From the NCBI RefSeq assembly GCF_003569005.1, contig NZ_BCUR01000004.1, forward strand, positions 1,897,111 through 1,961,110: DNA of 64,000 bases, given 5' to 3'. The notes beneath the pieces were generated by a model that worked only from the letters and a program-made list of their open reading frames with translations, was not told the DNA's origin and searched no databases. The position numbers were made by a program, and so were the translations under genes. This document shows, piece after piece, positions 24,312 to 51,329 of the stretch; the stretch's first letter is position 1, and every line of letters starts with the position of its first letter. Origin of the DNA: Vibrio superstes (GTDB lineage: Bacteria; Pseudomonadota; Gammaproteobacteria; Enterobacterales; Vibrionaceae).

Positions 24312-24696
24312 TCATTCTTGCGGTGATTATCGGGGAACCCTATAAGCTTTAGGTCCCCGATAGAAGCACTCGGGGACGACGGGGGTTGGCTTGAAAGCTA
24401 ATAGCTGCAAAAATGTCATTCCCGCATGCTGTTAGCGGGAATCTGGGAACGTACTCATTTATAGATTGCCGATTGGAGACTTCGGCAATGACGGGCTTGG
24501 GCTTCGAGCCTCAATCTGTCAGCTGACCGATATTAGCTAAAAACTGTAAAACATCATTCCCGCATGCTGTTAGCGGGAATCTTAGAACGCACTCTCTGAA
24601 GATTGCCGATAAGGGACCTCGGCAATGACTGGGGGTTGGATCGAAGCCTCAAGCTGCCAGCCGTCAGCTAATAGATAACAGCTGTAAAATCGTCAT
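24312..24696. repeat. Cluster of REP-like palindromic units
   Basis: Successive units, about 138 bp apart from 24416 on, each have a hairpin of the type TCATTCCCGC...GCGGGAATCT followed by an opposed hairpin such as TTGCCGA...TCGGCAATGACGGG and a CAGCT-rich linker. Units begin near 24312 (diverged), 24416, 24554 and 24693; the last is interrupted by the insertion element. Stem sequences vary between units but pairing is kept. The 137 bp from the ruvA stop to 24312 hold no gene. Confidence 0.8.
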
Positions 24697-24698
24697 AT

Positions 24699-24710
24699 AT
24701 GGACCCACCC
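24699..24710 (+). repeat. Inverted repeat of the insertion element, ruvA side
   Basis: ATGGACCCACCC, the perfect reverse complement of 26070-26081. Confidence 0.88.
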
Positions 24711-24981
24711 AGTTTGCAAGTCATTTTACATTCTTGGTTATTGAGTCATTGTCGTTCATATATTCGGCCTGTTTACTGAGCTCTATCGTGCTCATGGCCT
24801 TGATGTAATCTGCACCCAATGCTCTTTATCATTCCCACGGCTTCTGATGAGCCAATGACGGTGTCAGAGTTTCACTGGGGCGGGATGACCGCTAACCATC
24901 GATGTAAAATGTATCGCAACTGACGATGAGTGTTGTTTAACTGGTTAATTCCCTACTGTTTAGAGCGTTAGCATTATCAAG
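24711..24981 (-). ncRNA. Candidate bridge RNA region of the insertion element
   Basis: Non-coding 271 bp following the transposase stop. In IS1111-type elements the bridge RNA is encoded on this side. The strip holds ATCATTCCC (24828-24836), identical to the head of the REP target flanking the element, next to a GGCT/AGCC stem-loop (24839-24853), and CCGCTAAC (24889-24896), complementary to GTTAGCGG in the same REP. Extent, structure and strand are inferred. Confidence 0.5.
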
Positions 24982-26001
24982 TTATGCTTCTTTAAGTTGG
25001 TACGGTTTGTTGTGTGTAATCACAGCCCAGACAATGCGTGCCAACTTATTCGCTAACGCTACACAGGCTTTGTTAAAGCTTTTCTCATGCTTCAGCTTAG
25101 TTGCCCAGACGCTCACCTTGTCTTCTTTCCTATCTGCATATTGGAGTACACTCCTCGCTCCGTGTATCAGAAGCGCTCTGAGTACGACGTTACCTTTCTT
25201 GGTGATGCCATACAGTTGAGATTTCCCTCCAGTTGAGAACTGTCTCGGAACCAGACCACACCAAGCAGAGAAGTGTCGACCACTCTTAAACTGTGTCCCT
25301 TTCCCAATGGCTGCATACAACGCTAGCGCGGTGATAGGTCCGATACCCACGACACTTTGCGCTATCTGACAGACATAATTTTCTTTAGCAAAAGCCTTTA
25401 GCTTGCTCTCGACCTGTTCAATACGGTCGTTTAAGGACAAGAACTCCTGGTACAGTTCATTGAACAAATCTCTAGCGACCCAGGTCAGTTCGTTACCTGG
25501 GTCTTCTAAGAACTCTGGAACGGACCTACGCAAGGCTGAGATACCTCGATTCATACAGAGCCCATACTCAAGCAGTAATCCTCGTATCTGGTTCATTAGT
25601 TGAGTGCGTTGCTTAATCAAGCGTTGCCTAATACGCAGGTACATTTGAGCGTCTTGTTGGTCAATGGTTTTTATCGGTACAAACGTCATATTGTCACGTT
25701 GTGCGGCTTCCGCTATCGCTTCTGCGTCGTTGTAGTCATTCTTATTTTTACGACGATATGAAGTGACATGTTGCGGAGGGACGAGTTTAACCTCATGCCC
25801 AAGCTTGATGAGCTCCCGAGCCAAGTGATTAGAGGCACCACAGGCTTCAATGGCAATTGTTTGAGGAGCTAACTTAGCAAAGTATGAGAGTGTAGCCGCG
25901 CGCTTAAGCTGCTTCTTATATGTGATTTTTCCGCGTGATGTGACGAACACTGCATGAAAAACATTCTTGGCAATATCTAATCCGACCGTTACATTTGTCA
26001 T
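24982..26001 (-). CDS. IS110-family DEDD transposase
   Basis: 339 aa. RuvC-like N-terminal domain with acidic residues D9 (VGLDIAKN), E52 (AIEACG), D89 and D92 (NDYNDAEA); C-terminal Transposase_20 domain (VVGIGPITALALYAAIG) with the serine-containing FSTGGKSQLYGITKKGN that supplies the catalytic Ser. AAGGGTAGG lies just upstream of the ATG. Intact, no frameshift. It acts as an RNA-guided recombinase in well-studied family members. Confidence 0.95.
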   Translation of the reverse strand: MTNVTVGLDIAKNVFHAVFVTSRGKITYKKQLKRAATLSYFAKLAPQTIAIEACGASNHLARELIKLGHEVKLVPPQHVTSYRRKNKNDYNDAEAIAEAAQRDNMTFVPIKTIDQQDAQMYLRIRQRLIKQRTQLMNQIRGLLLEYGLCMNRGISALRRSVPEFLEDPGNELTWVARDLFNELYQEFLSLNDRIEQVESKLKAFAKENYVCQIAQSVVGIGPITALALYAAIGKGTQFKSGRHFSAWCGLVPRQFSTGGKSQLYGITKKGNVVLRALLIHGARSVLQYADRKEDKVSVWATKLKHEKSFNKACVALANKLARIVWAVITHNKPYQLKEA

Positions 26002-26069
26002 GTGGACCTACCCTTATTTAGATGCTTGTTTGTTCAACTTCATCTTGGCGCATTGTGACGCCGTGTAAA

Positions 26070-26081
26070 GGGTGGGTCCAT
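26070..26081 (-). repeat. Inverted repeat of the insertion element, ruvC side
   Basis: GGGTGGGTCCAT, the reverse complement of the left repeat at 24699-24710, 69 bp upstream of the transposase start. Confidence 0.88.
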
Positions 26082-26083
26082 TT

Positions 26084-26215
26084 CATTATTCCCGCGTGCT
26101 GTTAGCGGGAATCTGGGAGCGCACTCTTTGAAGATTGCCGATAAGAGACCTCGGCAATGACGGGAGTTGGACTGATAGCTTCAAGCTGCCAACTGTCAGC
26201 TAACAGCTATTAACT
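26084..26215. repeat. REP-like unit continuing past the insertion element
   Basis: TTCCCGCGTGCTGTTAGCGGG hairpin, then TTGCCGATAAGAGACCTCGG, then the CAGCT-rich linker: the rest of the unit begun at 24693. It ends a few bases before the ruvC stop. Confidence 0.8.
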
Positions 26216-30843: not shown

Positions 30844-30954
30844 TGATCCTTTTAAGCCAAGGATCACCTAGCCAACTGACGTTGTTAGTGAACGTAGTTA
30901 TTGTTCACAAGAATACAAGCCGATCGCACGTTTTTTCGTGGTCGGCTTTTTTTT
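30844..30954 (+). ncRNA. qrr: Quorum-regulatory small RNA (Qrr)
   Basis: About 111 nt. Stem-loop 1 TGATCCTTTTAAGCCAAGGATCA, then the conserved Qrr core CCTAGCCAACTGACGTTGTT, then a TTGTTCAC stem and a terminator (30917-30954: AAGCCGATCGCACG, loop T6, CGTGGTCGGCTT, T tract). Made under LuxO-P with sigma-54 at low cell density; with Hfq it controls the LuxR/HapR master regulator and others. Which of the qrr copies it is cannot be told from here. Confidence 0.95.
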
Positions 30955-30986
30955 GCTTGTCATTTAACTTCAAGAGTAGCAGAGAC

Positions 30987-45786: not shown

Positions 45787-46434
45787 ATGCAAGAACTAAA
45801 ACAGTTCAACGAACAACGCGCTGAAATCTACTGGTGGTTTTCAAGCCTGTTCTCTAAAGAACTGACAGAAGAAGATTTGAAGGCCTATCAATCTGCCGAA
45901 GTACGTGGATTTCTAGGCGGGTTGGCTGAAAATGAAGAACTGGTTAAGTCTGTAGAACGCGTTGTTGACGCGCTCAACCGTCTTCAAGATAGAGAAGATG
46001 CTCAGCTCGAACTCGCTGCAGATTTTTGTGACCTATTCTTAACGTCAGACAAGTATGCTGCACTGCCCTACGCCTCTATCTATCTGGATGACAGTAAATT
46101 GCTCAATGGCAAGCCTGCTCAAGATATGGCGCAGTTAATGTTGGAGAAAGGCATTGAAGTGGATAAGAACTTCAACGAACCTGCTGACCACCTCGCCTTA
46201 GAATTGGATTTCCTTGGTAACCTGATTATTCGCTCCAATGAGCTAGAACAAGAGTCTCACCTTGAACAAGCACTAGCGGAACAAAAGGCGTTAATAGAAG
46301 AGCACATCCTTTCTTGGGTACCGCAATTTTCTGAAAACTGCACTCAATATGATGAGTTTGGTTTTTATTCTTCCGTCGCTGAATTGCTCGTTAACTTCTG
46401 TGAATTAGATTGCCGCTATCTGGGCAATGAGTAA
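45787..46434 (+). CDS. torD: TMAO reductase chaperone TorD
   Basis: 215 aa, all-helical TorD/DmsD family: [17 protein letters not shown] at the start and [35 protein letters not shown] in the middle. Binds the TorA signal and core for molybdenum cofactor loading. It lies 10 kb from torECA, across the muk operon. Confidence 0.95.
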
Positions 46435-46449
46435 TAGATTCACATTATG

Positions 46450-46484
46450 GCCATAAATGCATTGTCAGCACTTGCATTTATGGC
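46450..46484 (+). terminator. Hairpin downstream of torD
   Basis: GCCATAAATGCA (46450-46461) and TGCATTTATGGC (46473-46484), a perfect 12-bp stem, 16 bp after the torD stop. No T tract, so its terminator role is uncertain. Confidence 0.55.
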
Positions 46485-46495
46485 TAGACTGCCCG

Positions 46496-46511
46496 GCGCA
46501 ATCGTTTGCAG
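46496..46511 (+). promoter_or_regulatory. PUR box upstream of purR
   Basis: GCGCAATCGTTTGCAG fits the PurR operator consensus (ANGCAANCGNTTNCNT). It lies 75 bp before the purR start and suggests autoregulation. Confidence 0.78.
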
Positions 46512-46585
46512 TATAGGCTAAGAGTGCTAACCTCTTCCTAACTTTCCATTTTCAATAACCCTCAGTTTTCTTTACAAGGTATAGC

Positions 46586-47602
46586 ATGGCAACCATTAAA
46601 GACGTCGCAAAGCTAGCTGGTGTGTCCACTACCACTGTTTCCCACGTGATTAACAAAACTCGTTTTGTTGCAGAAGCAACGCAAGAACGTGTAATGGACG
46701 CAGTAAAAGAGCTTAACTATGCACCAAGTGCAGTAGCTCGTAGTCTTAAATGTAACACCACTCGCACCATTGGCATGTTGGTAACTCAGTCGACGAACCC
46801 ATTCTTTGCAGAAGTGGTCGACGGCGTAGAAAGCTACTGCTATCGCCAAGGCTATACCCTAATCCTATGTAACACTGGTGGGTTATATGAGAAGCAACGT
46901 GACTACATTCGCATGCTTGCAGAGAAGCGCGTTGACGGTATTTTAGTCATGTGTTCTGATCTGACTGAAGAATTGCGTGAAATGTTAGATTCTCACCCAG
47001 GTATCCCGAAAGTAGTGATGGACTGGGGCCCTGAGTCTTCATCTGCAGACAAGATCATCGATAACTCAGAGGAAGGTGGCTATCTAGCGACTAAATACCT
47101 TGTTAAAAATGGTCATAAGCGAATTGCTTGTCTGACAGGTCAAGCTGAGAAACTGGCGTGCATCGAGCGTATTTCCGGTTATAAGCGTGCTCTAAAAGAA
47201 GCGAACATCGATTTTGACGAGAAACGTATTTTTGAAGGCAACTTCGAATGCGATACCGCTGTTGAAACTGCTGACAAGCTGTTTGCTATTCCAGAAGAGC
47301 AGCGTCCTACTGCTGTGTTCTGTTTTAACGACATTATGGCATTAGGCCTGATCAGTCGCCTACGCCAACATGGTCTGTTGGTTCCTGAAGATATTTCGAT
47401 CATTGGCTATGACAATATCGACCTTGCAGCCTACTTTGCTCCGCCACTGACTACGGTTCACCAACCTAAGCGTCGTGTGGGCAAGACTGCATTTGAGATC
47501 CTTCTTGAGCGAATCAAAGATAAAGAGCACGACCGCCGTGTCTTTGAAATGCACCCAGAGCTGATTGAACGTGCGAGCGTTCGTAATCTTAATGCTGGGT
47601 AA
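46586..47602 (+). CDS. purR: Purine repressor PurR
   Basis: 338 aa LacI family. Helix-turn-helix [30 protein letters not shown] with hinge helix SAVARSLK, then a purine-binding core ([39 protein letters not shown]). Represses purine genes with hypoxanthine/guanine. Own operator candidate upstream. Confidence 0.97.
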
Positions 47603-47619
47603 GTTGTAAAATATTTGAG

Positions 47620-47646
47620 AACGGCAGCCCTAGGGCTGCCGTTTTT
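47620..47646 (+). terminator. Terminator of purR
   Basis: ACGGCAGCCC / GGGCTGCCGT around TA, 18 bp after the purR stop, followed by TTTT. Confidence 0.9.
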
Positions 47647-47726
47647 GTTTACTAGGCTAAACCCTTACCCATAGCAAACGTCACCCTTGATGATTCCAAA
47701 CGTATCACCCTAGAGCTTCCAACCCC

Positions 47727-49084
47727 GTCCTCGAGCGCTTCTATCTAGGGTCTACTACCTTTGGAGCTCTTTAGGTTCCCGATAAAAGCACTCGGGAACG
47801 ACGGTGTGTTTTGGTTGGTGCGTTTATGGTGTAATTTGAGTTCGAACAGTATCAAAACGGAGCGCCCAAGGGCTCCCAACACCGTCACCCTCGATCGCTT
47901 CTATCGAGGGTCTACTACCTTTGAAGCTCTTTAGGTTCCCGATAAAAGCACTCGGGAACGACGGTGTGTTTTAGTTGCTTCGCTTATGCTGTAATTTGGG
48001 TCCGTTCAGTATCAAAAAGGAACGCCCAAGATCTCCCAAACACGTCACCCTCGAGCGCTCCTATCGAGGGTCTACTACCTCTGAAGCTCTTTAGGTTCCC
48101 GATAAAAGCACTCGGGAACGACGCTGTGTTTTGGTTGATTCGTTCATAGTGGAATTTGGGCCCGTTCAGTATCAAAACAGAACGCCCAAGATCTCCCAAA
48201 ACGCGTCACCCTCGAGCGCTCCTATCGAGGGTCTACTACCTTTAGAGCTCCTTAGGTTCCCGATAAAAGCACTCGGGAACGACGGTGTGTTTTGGTTGAT
48301 TCGTTCATAGTGGAATTTGGGCCCGTTCAGTATCAAAAAGGAACGCCCAAGATCTCCCAAACACGTCACCCTCGAGCGCTCCTATCGAGGGTCTACTACC
48401 TTTGGAGCTCCTTAGGTTCCCGATAAAAGCACTCGGGAACGACGGTGTGTTTTGGTTGGTTCATTTATGCTGTAATTTGAGTTCGAACAGTATCAAAAAG
48501 GAGCGCACAAGATCTCCCAAAACGCGTCACCCTCGAGTGCTTCTATCGAGGGTCTATTACCTCTGGAGCTCTCTAGGTTCCCGATAAAAGCACTCGGGAA
48601 CAACGGTGTGTTTTGGTTGGTTCGTTTATGCAGTAATTTGAGTCAACCCAACATTAAAATAGAGAACACAGTGCCCCAAAACACATCACCCTCGAGCGCT
48701 TCTATCGAGGGTCTACTGCCTTTGGAACTCTTTAGGTTCCCGATAAAAGCACTCGGGAACGACGGTGTGTTTTGGTTGCTTCGTTTATGGTGTAATTTGG
48801 GTCCGTTCAGTATCAAAACAGACGCCCAAGATCTCCCAACACCGTCACCCTCGAGTGCTTCTATCGATGGTCTACTGTCTTTGTAACTCTCTAGGTTCCC
48901 GATAAAAGCACTCGGGAACGACGGTGTGTTTTGGTTATTTCGTTTATGGTGTAATTTGGGTCCGTTCAGTATCAAAACAGAACGCCCAAGATCTCCCAAA
49001 CCCGTCACCCTCGAGCGCTCCTATCGAGGGTCTATTACCTCTGGAGCTCTTTAGGTTCCCGATAAAGGCACTCGGGAACGACGG
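47727..49084. repeat. Tandem array of about 8.5 units of 160 bp, each a pair of opposed REP-like hairpins
   Basis: Unit starts (GTCACCCTCGA or close) at about 47727, 47884, 48044, 48205, 48365, 48526, 48685, 48844 and 49004 (last unit half). Each unit holds CCCTCGA...TCGAGGG, then TTCCCGATAAAAGCACTCGG with GAACGACGG (its own hairpin), then a 60-bp linker with TTCAGTATCAAAA. Short open frames inside it are an effect of the repeats. The array starts about 80 bp past the purR terminator; the 47649-47726 strip holds partial units, and the 180 bp to 49269 only the promoter region of the next gene. Confidence 0.93.
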
Positions 49085-49268
49085 GGGAGGTACACTAAAA
49101 AACGACGGGAGTGTGACTTAAGAGAGATTGGCGTGTTCACTCGCGAACAACGAGCATGCGCACACGACTTGATACAAGCTTAACCATCTCACCTTAAAAT
49201 AATTAATTTGAAAGTTTTTTATTGCTTGTCGTGTCTCTATACTTACTCAGGATGATAAGGGCAGAATC

Positions 49269-49955
49269 ATGAATAAGAAATTGATAATCGGGCTAATTTT
49301 AGTGGTTGCTATCGTGCTACTCGGTGCGAATTTTGGTCAATATCTAACCCTAGAAAATGCCAAGGCACAGCAACTGGCATTGAATGCTCAGATCGAAGAA
49401 AACTTCGTGCTTTCTGCTGCTCTGTATTTTATTGGGTATGTATTCATTACCGCTTTTTCTATTCCTGGTGCTGCGGTGGTTACGCTGTTAGGTGCTGCCC
49501 TGTTTGGCTTTTGGAGTAGCTTATTGTTGGTGTCTTTCGCAAGTACCATTGGCGCTACCTTGGCGTTTTTGAGTAGCCGTTACTTACTACGTGATTGGGT
49601 TCAAGCGAAGTTTGGCTCTAAGCTAGAGACCATCAACAAAGGGGTCGAAAAAGATGGCGCATTTTATCTCTTCTCTTTGCGTCTTATCCCTGTATTCCCA
49701 TTCTTCTTGATCAATTTGCTTATGGGACTTACTCCCATTTCTATCGCCAAGTTTTATCTATTCAGCCAGTTAGGCATGCTTGCAGGGACTATGGTGTATC
49801 TAAATGCGGGCACACAATTAGCAGAGATAGACAGCTTATCAGGCATCGTATCACCTACTGTATTAGCTTCATTCGCTTTGTTAGGACTGTTCCCGCTGAT
49901 TGCCAAATGGGTAATGGGCAAAATCCGCCCGCAGAACGGCTCAAGCGCGGCATAA
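49269..49955 (+). CDS. TVP38/TMEM64 family membrane protein
   Basis: 228 aa, about five membrane helices, SNARE-associated/DedA-like domain. Conserved FSIPGAAVVTLLGAALFG and RLIPVFPFFLINLLMG are the paired re-entrant motifs of the family. Probably an inner-membrane lipid or small-molecule handling protein; substrate unknown. RBS AAGGGCAG eight bases upstream. Confidence 0.88.
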   Translation: MNKKLIIGLILVVAIVLLGANFGQYLTLENAKAQQLALNAQIEENFVLSAALYFIGYVFITAFSIPGAAVVTLLGAALFGFWSSLLLVSFASTIGATLAFLSSRYLLRDWVQAKFGSKLETINKGVEKDGAFYLFSLRLIPVFPFFLINLLMGLTPISIAKFYLFSQLGMLAGTMVYLNAGTQLAEIDSLSGIVSPTVLASFALLGLFPLIAKWVMGKIRPQNGSSAA

Positions 49956-49967
49956 CTGAGGGTCACA

Positions 49968-50282
49968 ATGAAACTATTTGTCGCGCAAAATCCCCCACAA
50001 GCTCACATACTTTGTGAGCTTTTGCTTAGTCACAACATTCAAGTTGAAGTACGTGGTGAAGGTATGTTTGGCCTGCAGGGAGAGCTTCCAATGGACGATT
50101 CTAGCCTGCCCTATCTTTGGCTTATTGACCATCATAAGCAGGAACAAGCTAAAGCGATCATTGCGGAGTTTGAACGTAATGGCAGTCATTTAGCAAATAG
50201 CGAATGGCGCTGCGCTGAGTGTGGGGAAACCAACGAGGGTCAGTTTGCTCTGTGTTGGCAATGTGGTAGCAGTTCGAGTTAG
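49968..50282 (+). CDS. DUF2007 protein with C-terminal zinc ribbon
   Basis: 104 aa. N-terminal signal-transducing-type DUF2007 domain (MKLFVAQNPPQAHILCELLLSHNIQVEVRG) and a C-terminal CAECGETN...CWQCG zinc ribbon (four Cys). Twelve bases after the TVP38 gene, probably co-transcribed. Function unknown. Confidence 0.82.
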   Translation: MKLFVAQNPPQAHILCELLLSHNIQVEVRGEGMFGLQGELPMDDSSLPYLWLIDHHKQEQAKAIIAEFERNGSHLANSEWRCAECGETNEGQFALCWQCGSSSS

Positions 50283-50293
50283 CGAGCGTTTAT

Positions 50294-50451
50294 ACCAGTC
50301 GTACTAAATAACTGGTCATCCTAGCTTGTTAAAATGCTCGATGACTGCGTTAGAATTTTTGATTGTAGAATAACTACTTATCGAAAAATTCTGCCTTGTC
50401 CTCGAGAATTTTTCCTACGCTATTTCTGATCACTTACTTAGTGTGATTGGT
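50294..50451. mobile_element. MITE-like palindromic element (158 bp)
   Basis: Ends are 25-bp inverted repeats (50294-50318 and 50427-50451) matching at 19 of 25 positions, starting ACCAGTC/ACCAATC. The interior also folds on itself around GTAG-AATAA-CTAC, with AGAATTTTT arms, so the whole piece is one long imperfect hairpin. No coding capacity. Its right end forms the last 22 bp of the LysR gene. Confidence 0.65.
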
Positions 50452-51329
50452 CTTACTTTATAATGCTTAACAAACTCTATAAATAACTTCACCCGCGCAG
50501 GCAATAGATCTCGGTTAAGGTAAACCATGAAGATGGGGCGAACCATTCTCTGCTCTGCTTCTAATATTTGAATGAGATCCTTATTCGCAATATCTTCTGC
50601 CACTAGTGCCTGTGGCTGCAGGATAATCCCTGTCCCTAGTTTCGCTAACATTCGTAAGCTGTTGCCATTATTGCAACTGACAGGGGCAGAGCTTAGATTC
50701 AGGGGCTTAATGTTGTAATGGTCTGCAAACGAGGAGCTTGTTCCCCAAGGGGAAAAGGCTAGTACCTTGTGCTTGGCTAGATCGTCTAAACATCTTGGTG
50801 TTCCATATTCTTCAAGGTATTGGGGAGAGGCGCAAAACACCATTACCTGCTCATCGACTCGCATGCTGATGAATCCGGAATCCGCTAACTGCCCTACTCT
50901 AAAATAAAAATCGAACTTATCATCGATAATGTCAGAAAGCTCATCTGACAGAGTGAGCGCAATCTGTATTTCTGGGTAGTGTAGATTGAACTGGTGAATG
51001 AGCGGGCATAATTCGTAGGTACCATAGTTGGTAGGCGCACACACCCGAATAAGGCCGTCAGCATCCGTTGATTGGTGGTTAAGCTCCTGCTCAACCGCTG
51101 ACAGCTCACTCAGAATATTTCGGCAACTCTTTAAGTAAAGTTCACCCGCCTCTGTAAGGGTTTGCTTGCGAGTATTTCGATTGAGTAGCTTTAGTTTAAG
51201 CTCTGCCTCTAGCTGGGAAATAGACTTACTCACCATAGCCACTGAGATGCTCAGTCTATCAGCCGCCTTAGTGAAACTGCCTTCGTCACATACACTGATA
51301 AAGGTTTCGATAGCCTTAAACTTGTCCAT
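50430..51329 (-). CDS. LysR-family transcriptional regulator
   Basis: 299 aa: FKAIETFISVCDEGSFTKAADRLSISVAMVSKSISQLEAEL gives the winged helix, CAPTNYGTYELCPLIHQF the effector domain. Divergent from the LysE-type exporter gene (122-bp gap), so probably its regulator. The last six residues (PITLSK) and the stop codon come from the palindromic element at 50294-50451. Confidence 0.9.
   Translation of the reverse strand: MDKFKAIETFISVCDEGSFTKAADRLSISVAMVSKSISQLEAELKLKLLNRNTRKQTLTEAGELYLKSCRNILSELSAVEQELNHQSTDADGLIRVCAPTNYGTYELCPLIHQFNLHYPEIQIALTLSDELSDIIDDKFDFYFRVGQLADSGFISMRVDEQVMVFCASPQYLEEYGTPRCLDDLAKHKVLAFSPWGTSSSFADHYNIKPLNLSSAPVSCNNGNSLRMLAKLGTGIILQPQALVAEDIANKDLIQILEAEQRMVRPIFMVYLNRDLLPARVKLFIEFVKHYKVRPITLSK

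What the first reader, a model, noticed from the sequence alone, without database searches (positions are those of the whole stretch)
47727..49084. 160-bp tandem array of opposed REP pairs after purR
Eight and a half units in a row with spacing of 157-161 bp, each with two conserved opposed hairpins. Most unit differences are outside the stems or compensated. The array is long for a REP cluster, not coding (160 is not a multiple of 3 and stops occur), and lacks CRISPR spacers or attC sites. Possible roles: gyrase or NAP binding, transcription stop, or a target for mobile units.
Basis: seen in the sequence. Interest (0 to 1): 0.6.

Follow-up and report, generated by a model that had tools for sequence, protein, structure and literature searches.

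The report
Tandem array of CGTC-tagged REP pairs
In a marine Vibrio, a run of nine near-identical pairs of short DNA hairpins lies behind a gene; it is one of many such arrays of a known class of small repeats, differs in copy number between related species, and belongs to a repeat family into which RNA-guided jumping genes insert.

Summary
The array is real: nine inverted REP pairs (about 80 bp each) separated by eight spacers of about 80 bp, period 159-161, between purR and a VTT-domain gene. Each REP is a CGTC tag plus 8-bp stem and 9-nt loop, placing it in the CGTC-tagged REP superfamily (Di Nocera 2013). The genome has 212 such motifs (control 0), and 13 of 16 chosen REP-rich regions are also tandem arrays. 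V. breoganii FF50 has three pairs at this site; V. comitans and V. inusitatus carry another CGTC-REP there; three sister species have short gaps and no hits to either REP motif. Stems covary genome-wide; this array's spacers had no hit at the other loci examined. Best reading: dispersed REP pairs trapped a spacer, then the unit expanded and contracted by recombination or slippage (inferred). Two IS110 elements sit in such REPs in 8 of 8 and 9 of 9 copies, one in this window, so the REP family is a landing site; three other IS110 hits do not show this. No tyrosine transposase flanked by these REPs was found; what disperses them is open. Gyrase/NAP, termination and sRNA roles are untested. New member of a known kind.

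The parts
46586..47602 (+). purR-like LacI-family repressor gene upstream of the array
   Evidence: NCBIfam best hit PurR NF007979, 476.7 bits against cut-off 501, i.e. just under it; Pfam LacI and Peripla_BP_3
47620..47649 (+). GC-rich perfect palindrome followed by a T-run just after purR, a likely intrinsic terminator that separates purR from the array
   Evidence: read directly in the sequence; the consensus scan did not list it
47726..47803 (.). REP pair 1 (left REP degenerate)
47883..47963 (.). REP pair 2: CGTC-tagged hairpin on + starting 47883, CGTC-tagged hairpin on - ending 47963, tags outward
47964..48042 (.). spacer between pairs 2 and 3 (one of eight, about 80 bp); no marked structure
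48043..48123 (.). REP pair 3
48204..48284 (.). REP pair 4
48364..48444 (.). REP pair 5
48525..48605 (.). REP pair 6 (right tag changed)
48684..48764 (.). REP pair 7 (left tag CATC)
48843..48923 (.). REP pair 8 (one stem mismatch in the left REP)
49003..49083 (.). REP pair 9, last
49269..49955 (+). VTT-domain (DedA-like) membrane protein gene downstream
   Evidence: Pfam PF09335, E 2e-21
24349..26162 (.). second CGTC-REP cluster in the same window, interrupted by an IS110 element
   Evidence: tagged hairpins at 24381, 24414, 24493, 24630, 26162; TRF 138 bp x 2.0
24692..26114 (-). IS110 stretch shared between copies (1423 bp, includes part of the target REP), inserted at the hairpin/tag junction of a REP; transposase ORF 24982-26001
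   Evidence: NF033542 343.7 bits against cut-off 140

Best explanation
The array is a tandem (BIME-2/REPIN-cluster-like) array of CGTC-tagged REP heterodimers. Shown: each 80-bp pair is two different REPs with tags outward; this kind of pair is scattered through the genome, while the spacers of this array were found at none of the other loci examined; copy number at this site differs between closely related species; stems are kept paired by compensatory change across arrays. Inferred: two REP pairs came to flank a piece of ordinary intergenic DNA, and recombination or replication slippage between the near-identical pairs then multiplied pair plus spacer, giving n pairs and n-1 spacers. The REPs themselves behave as small dispersed elements; IS110 elements of the RNA-guided type use them as intergenic landing sites. 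At the purR site the array sits behind a likely terminator and most likely has no dedicated regulatory job.
For: Array anatomy. 212 motif hits in this genome against 0 for the reversed pattern. The 53 non-self matches listed for the array in the genome lie mainly (at least 74% of each) on the REP pair; the eight spacers give 0 BLAST hits (E<=1e-3) in 24 other fetched stretches of this genome, some of which overlap each other, while the pairs give 766 hits in 21 of them. 13 of 16 other regions, chosen for clustered REP hits, are tandem arrays with periods 79-214. Outer five stem pairs 95.8% paired in 125 distinct REPs against 75.1 +/- 1.0% when right arms are shuffled, maximum of 500 shuffles 78.6%. 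TRF copies here v V. breoganii FF50: 8.5 v 2.6 (this site), 2.9 v 6.3, 3.7 v 4.7, 5.9 v 2.8. Between the two species REP pairs keep 78-91% identity, spacers only 56-76%. V. halioticoli, V. ezurae and Vibrio sp. UCD-FRSSP16_30 have 158-202 bp gaps there and no hit to either REP motif in the genome.
Against: The amplification step is not observed, only inferred from between-species counts; no strains of one species were compared. 'n pairs, n-1 spacers' was counted at this site in two species only. Spacers are not always private to one locus: arrays L171 and L172, 15 kb apart, share 86 bp at 87% outside masked hairpins, and L169 and L175 share a spacer. After masking, 19 of 91 pairs of arrays still show short matches; apart from L171/L172 (up to 86 bp) those printed are 19-42 bp, probably unmasked degenerate REPs. 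The shuffle control for covariation does not remove relatedness among array copies, though only distinct 33-mers were used. The fourth copy-number comparison is weak: FF50 lacks that spacer, the two flanks map 41 kb apart in this genome, and the G000 array runs into N. A regulatory or nucleoid role cannot be excluded.
Confidence: 0.75

Rival explanations
1. A functional gyrase/nucleoid-protein binding array like E. coli BIME-2, kept by selection to absorb supercoils behind purR.
For: Nunvar 2010 passage: BIME-2, tandem BIME-1-like units, strongly binds gyrase. The array has the same layout of alternating REPs, and stems are conserved.
Against: Copy number falls to three in V. breoganii, three sisters have only a short gap at this site, and two relatives have a different REP there, so this array is not needed in the clade. 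No binding data either way.
Confidence: 0.12
2. RAYT-mobilised REPIN cluster: the tandem structure is the direct product of a REP-associated tyrosine transposase acting on single-stranded REP pairs.
For: Bertels and Rainey 2011 passages: REPINs as replicative units and tandem REPIN clusters. This genome has one 324-aa HuH protein with 45.2 bits on NF047646 (cut-off 80) and 22.6 bits on PF01797 (cut-off 23). FF50 has eight PF01797 matches.
Against: The 324-aa protein's 3.2-kb locus shows no REP of this family, only one unrelated tagged palindrome; two of the FF50 PF01797 loci show none (the other six were not examined). The genome search with PF01797 found nothing at E<=0.001 in this genome, V. 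inusitatus or V. comitans, and of 148 genus genomes neither G144 (V. inusitatus) nor G107 (V. comitans by identical hit coordinates) is among the 75 with an NF047646 match. These searches can miss divergent proteins, as the 324-aa case shows for PF01797. Di Nocera 2013 found no CGTC-flanked transposase.
Confidence: 0.12
3. A transcribed element: hairpins acting as terminators, mRNA stabilisers or a small RNA.
For: The array lies between two genes on the same strand; the pair's hairpins are strong.
Against: A likely terminator precedes the array; no promoter-like site was found in 47500-49400 and terminator-like sites do not exceed shuffles (3 v mean 2.0); no Rfam family matches here at the gathering score.
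Confidence: 0.1

Closest known systems
CGTC-tagged REP superfamily (Di Nocera, De Gregorio, Rocco 2013, PMC3733652)
   Same: CGTC tag at one end, 8-bp stem with mostly A-T and T-A at the first two pairs, heterodimers, no dedicated flanking transposase found
   Different: 9-nt loop instead of mostly 4-5, tail CTN instead of mostly CCA; regular tandem arrays common, whereas grouped elements are called rare there outside Neisseriae and Wolbachia. The word Vibrio has 0 occurrences in the text held, but the figures that list the species are not held, so it may be listed there
Neisserial intergenic mosaic elements (NIMEs: dRS3 plus RS units)
   Same: short inverted repeats of the CGTC-1 type (dRS3) together with longer units in intergenic arrays of 200-2700 bp; also a landing site for a mobile element, a filamentous phage
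   Different: the Vibrio arrays are regular head-to-tail repeats of a REP pair plus spacer, and the mobile elements seen in the REPs are IS110
E. coli BIME-2 and Pseudomonas REPIN/REP tandem arrays
   Same: tandem units of opposed REPs plus linker; P. fluorescens SBW25 has 16 ordered REPIN clusters and tandem arrays of up to 12 GI/GIII REPs
   Different: the REP families of SBW25 lie beside RAYT genes; the largest SBW25 REPIN cluster has four REPINs plus one REP, here nine pairs. That these are GTAG-type is from PMC3733652 passages for Pseudomonas and enterobacteria
REP-targeting IS110 elements (IS621, ISPpu9, ISPpu10, ISPa11, ISRm19)
   Same: IS110 transposase, every copy inside a REP
   Different: the two Vibrio elements hit CGTC-type REPs at two different points: hairpin/tag junction in one, untagged stem arm in the other

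Membership tests
CGTC-tagged REP superfamily | unpaired CGTC tetranucleotide (often TGTC) at one end of a short palindrome | tested here: met
   tag CGTC in 77 of 125 distinct REPs, TGTC 18, GGTC 11, AGTC 10, other 9 (the search motif itself contains CGTC, with up to 5 mismatches allowed in all)
CGTC-tagged REP superfamily | 8-9 bp stem, mostly A-T/T-A at the first two pairs | tested here: met
   A-T at the first pair 93 of 125, T-A at the second 97 of 125, 96% of cells paired over eight pairs
CGTC-tagged REP superfamily | high genomic copy number, mainly intergenic | tested here: met
   212 hits in 4.7 Mb; 20 of 21 tagged hairpins in the window lie outside ORFs of 150 aa or more (window only)
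CGTC-1 to CGTC-4 families | loop of 4-5 nt and CCA tail (the paper states exceptions to both) | tested here: not met
   loop fixed at 9 nt by the search motif; 10-11 nt between 7-bp arms for all but one hairpin in the window scan; tail CT followed by any base. Hence treated as a separate family
RAYT-mobilised REPIN | RAYT gene flanked by the same REPs | tested here: not met
   one sub-threshold HuH protein without REPs of this family in its 3.2-kb locus
RAYT-mobilised REPIN | two REPs in inverted orientation as the dispersed unit | tested here: met
   the 53 listed non-self matches fall mainly on the pair, many on one half of it only
BIME-2 | gyrase binding and cleavage | not testable with these tools
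   no binding data
CRISPR array | short repeats with unique spacers | tested here: not met
   the eight spacers are 66-94% identical to each other
Integron attC array | paired RYYYAAC / GTTRRRY boxes around cassettes with ORFs | tested here: not met
   0 box pairs on either strand of the array, shuffle mean 0.1 (simple box scan); only short ORFs
REP-targeting IS110 (for the elements, not the array) | all copies of the element inside REPs at a fixed point | tested here: met
   8 of 8 copies here with 7-8 of 8 arm pairs beside the junction, 9 of 9 in FF50 with 7-8 of 8 pairs across the insertion

The most novel reading that the evidence does not exclude
CGTC-REP pairs in this Vibrio clade are dispersed by an enzyme that is neither a REP-flanked RAYT nor IS110, and their arrays act as recombination joints and RNA-guided IS110 docking sites through which genome segments are gained or lost. 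Four REP-rich species beside three relatives without these REPs would let the unknown mobiliser be found by gene presence.
Probability: 0.15. Interest if true: 0.65.

Novelty: new member of a known kind. Interest (0 to 1): 0.38.

Why it matters
CGTC-tagged REPs are described as lacking a dedicated transposase, and what mobilises them is left open (PMC3733652 abstract and passages). This clade offers relatives rich in such REPs (this genome, V. breoganii, V. inusitatus, V. comitans) and relatives without hits to either motif (V. halioticoli, V. ezurae, Vibrio sp. UCD-FRSSP16_30), an array that changes length at one orthologous site, and two natural IS110 elements each fixed on CGTC-type REPs at a different point, which is useful for bridge-RNA target work. 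The array itself is an ordinary member of a genome-wide set.

Tried and rejected
Coding array: period not a multiple of 3, only short chance ORFs. CRISPR: spacers are repeated. attC array: first pattern failed on syntax; a box scan in a script found none. Rfam element: only Qrr in the window at gathering score. tRNA: none in 46000-50500.

'No tyrosine transposase at all' was my first reading; searches show one divergent HuH protein that itself scores 22.6 bits on PF01797 (cut-off 23), so the claim was narrowed to 'none found flanked by these REPs'. IS110 as the disperser of REPs: V. comitans has 46 hits of the second REP motif but no PF01548 match. IS110 always in REPs: not universal; the two V. 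inusitatus copies have no tagged hairpin in 4.4 kb, and the single 348-aa FF50 copy has two nearby but its ends were not mapped. 'Every array has its own spacer': not upheld; L171/L172 and L169/L175 share spacer sequence. My notebook count of '14 of 16' tandem regions was wrong: one search shows 13 of 16 (L181, L182, L184 without). The 41-kb segment between two arrays was first read as three pieces; one piece is a run of N.

Literature: nine searches listed no paper that I recognised as describing these Vibrio arrays. This is at the level of listings, some cut (15 of 594 shown, 12 of 28, 10 of 38, 8 of 10), in an open-licence library only. Papers opened: PMC3733652 (abstract, passages, sections 6, 7, 14), and passages only of PMC12306157, PMC3116915, PMC1525189, PMC2817692, PMC3898611, PMC11208160, PMC6006769.

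Full report
What is there. The window comes from a Vibrio close to V. breoganii: purR is 94.7% and the VTT gene 92.7% identical in DNA to V. breoganii FF50 (locus), and the sRNA Qrr lies in the window. Between purR (46586-47602) and the VTT gene (49269-49955) stands a tandem array at 47729-49084, period 160, 8.5 copies. Hairpin-to-hairpin distances are 159-161. Each unit has a left REP on the + strand and a right REP on the - strand, CGTC tags pointing outward, followed by a spacer of about 80 bp; there are nine pairs and eight spacers. A DNA fold of one pair gives two separate hairpins as the minimum-energy structure, better than all 200 shuffles; one spacer has no marked fold.

What family. 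The two REPs of a pair share the tag and a loop of the form GYGCTTYTA but have different stems. From 17 places (16 fetched regions and this array) 171 REPs, 125 distinct, were collected with a motif that does not cover the outer right arm; the outer five pairs are 95.8% paired against 75.1 +/- 1.0% with right arms shuffled (500 shuffles, maximum 78.6%), through many compensated stem types. This meets the tag and stem description of the CGTC superfamily (PMC3733652: abstract, passages and sections 6, 7, 14 seen) but not its usual loop and tail, so I treat it as a separate family in that superfamily. Its figures, which list species, are not held, so I cannot say that Vibrio is absent from it; the text held has no occurrence of the word.

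How widespread. The motif with up to 3 mismatches gives 212 hits in this genome and 0 for the reversed pattern. Of 148 genus genomes 22 have any hit; only this one and G144 have more than three, and the reversed control gives 0 or 1 per listed genome. FF50 has 113, V. comitans 3, and V. halioticoli, V. ezurae and Vibrio sp. UCD-FRSSP16_30 have 0. A second CGTC-REP motif, taken from the V. comitans site, gives 5, 19, 59, 46, 0, 0, 0 hits in G000, V. inusitatus, FF50, V. comitans and the three others. Other REP types were not sought, so the three are free of these two motifs, not proven free of all REPs. Of regions chosen for clustered hits, 13 of 16 in this genome and 4 of 4 in V. inusitatus hold tandem arrays with periods 79-214, and 16 of 20 in FF50 hold tandem repeats with a period above 60.

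How it formed. Pairs recur widely while the spacers of this array do not: the 53 listed non-self matches fall mainly on the pair (at least 74% of each match), and the eight spacers have 0 hits in 24 other fetched stretches of this genome, against 766 hits for the pairs, in 21 of the 24 (some stretches overlap). Among 14 arrays compared after masking hairpins, L171 and L172 (15 kb apart) share 86 bp at 87%; the other matches printed are 42 bp or less. L169 and L175 share a 24-base spacer stretch. At the purR site FF50 has three pairs spaced 158-160 bp. V. comitans has four copies of the second motif 143-144 bp apart there and V. inusitatus two, 143 bp apart (coordinates within the loci; sequences). 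Three relatives have gaps of 158-202 bp. TRF copies here v FF50 at arrays with shared flanks: 8.5 v 2.6, 2.9 v 6.3, 3.7 v 4.7, 5.9 v 2.8; in the last, FF50 lacks the spacer, the flanks map 41 kb apart in this genome, and the array here runs into 1108 N. Between the species, pairs keep 78-91% identity and spacers 56-76%. I infer recombination or slippage between pairs; this was not observed.

Mobile elements. PF01548 gives eight IS110 matches here, ten in FF50, two in V. inusitatus, none in V. comitans, and seven, three and one in V. halioticoli, V. ezurae and Vibrio sp. UCD-FRSSP16_30, which lack these REPs. The eight copies here all sit at the junction between a REP hairpin (7-8 of 8 arm pairs) and its tag (CGTC in five, TGTC in three). 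Nine FF50 copies of another IS110 all sit in the untagged arm of a tagged REP (7-8 of 8 pairs across the insertion; tag CGTC in eight, TGTC in one). One copy is in this window at 24692-26114, inside another REP cluster; the FF50 counterpart of that place carries REPs without the element. The transposase scores 343.7 bits on NF033542, 'IS110 family RNA-guided transposase'. The other three IS110 hits in FF50 and V. inusitatus do not clearly follow the rule. REP-targeting by IS110 is established (PMC1525189 passages; PMC11208160 passages). Tyrosine transposases: the genome search with PF01797 finds none at E<=0.001 in this genome, V. inusitatus or V. comitans and eight matches in FF50; the two FF50 loci returned show no tagged hairpin, the other six were not examined. 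One divergent 324-aa HuH protein here (45.2 bits on NF047646, cut-off 80; 22.6 bits on PF01797, cut-off 23) has no REP of this family in its 3.2-kb locus. PMC6006769 (passages) describes a subclass of about 325 aa not flanked by REPs, which it may resemble; I did not test this.

Function. A GC-rich palindrome plus T-run follows purR and the array lies behind it. No promoter-like site and no excess of terminator-like sites was found. Because the array shrinks to three pairs, is replaced by another REP or is missing in relatives, a required role at purR is unlikely; gyrase or nucleoid roles stay open.

Verdict. A real, well-formed array, ordinary for this genome, belonging to a known superfamily, in a clade for which I saw no report (nine searches, listings only). 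Most worth following: the undetermined disperser of CGTC-REPs and the two IS110 elements that use them.

Noticed in passing
window 24692-26114: IS110 element (RNA-guided type by NCBIfam name) inserted at the hairpin/tag junction of a REP in a second REP cluster; FF50 has REPs at the corresponding place without the element.
   Followed up: yes
L250-L252 (G000:C1:607100-649200): About 41 kb with metabolic genes (sulfatase, GH94, GH32, PTS, nucleoside transporter and others) lies between two REP arrays, with one more REP unit inside, all sharing one spacer; the flanks are joined by a single array in FF50 (L206). 20 of 38 listed ORFs were scanned with Pfam (two lie outside the segment, one spans N) and none gave a mobile-element domain. 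Gain or loss through REP arrays is possible; direction unknown.
   Followed up: partly
G000:C1:607753-608860 (in L169 and L250): A run of 1108 N inside a REP array: assembly gap or masked stretch.
   Followed up: partly
window 30844-30955: Qrr small RNA, 96.1 bits.
   Followed up: no
L089, L090 after purR: V. inusitatus and V. comitans carry another CGTC-REP type at the same intergenic site, two copies 143 bp apart and four copies 143-144 bp apart, which looks like a recurrent REP site.
   Followed up: partly
L189:1138-2112: Divergent 324-aa HuH tyrosine-transposase-like protein, sub-threshold NF047646 and PF01797 matches, no REP of this family nearby.
   Followed up: partly
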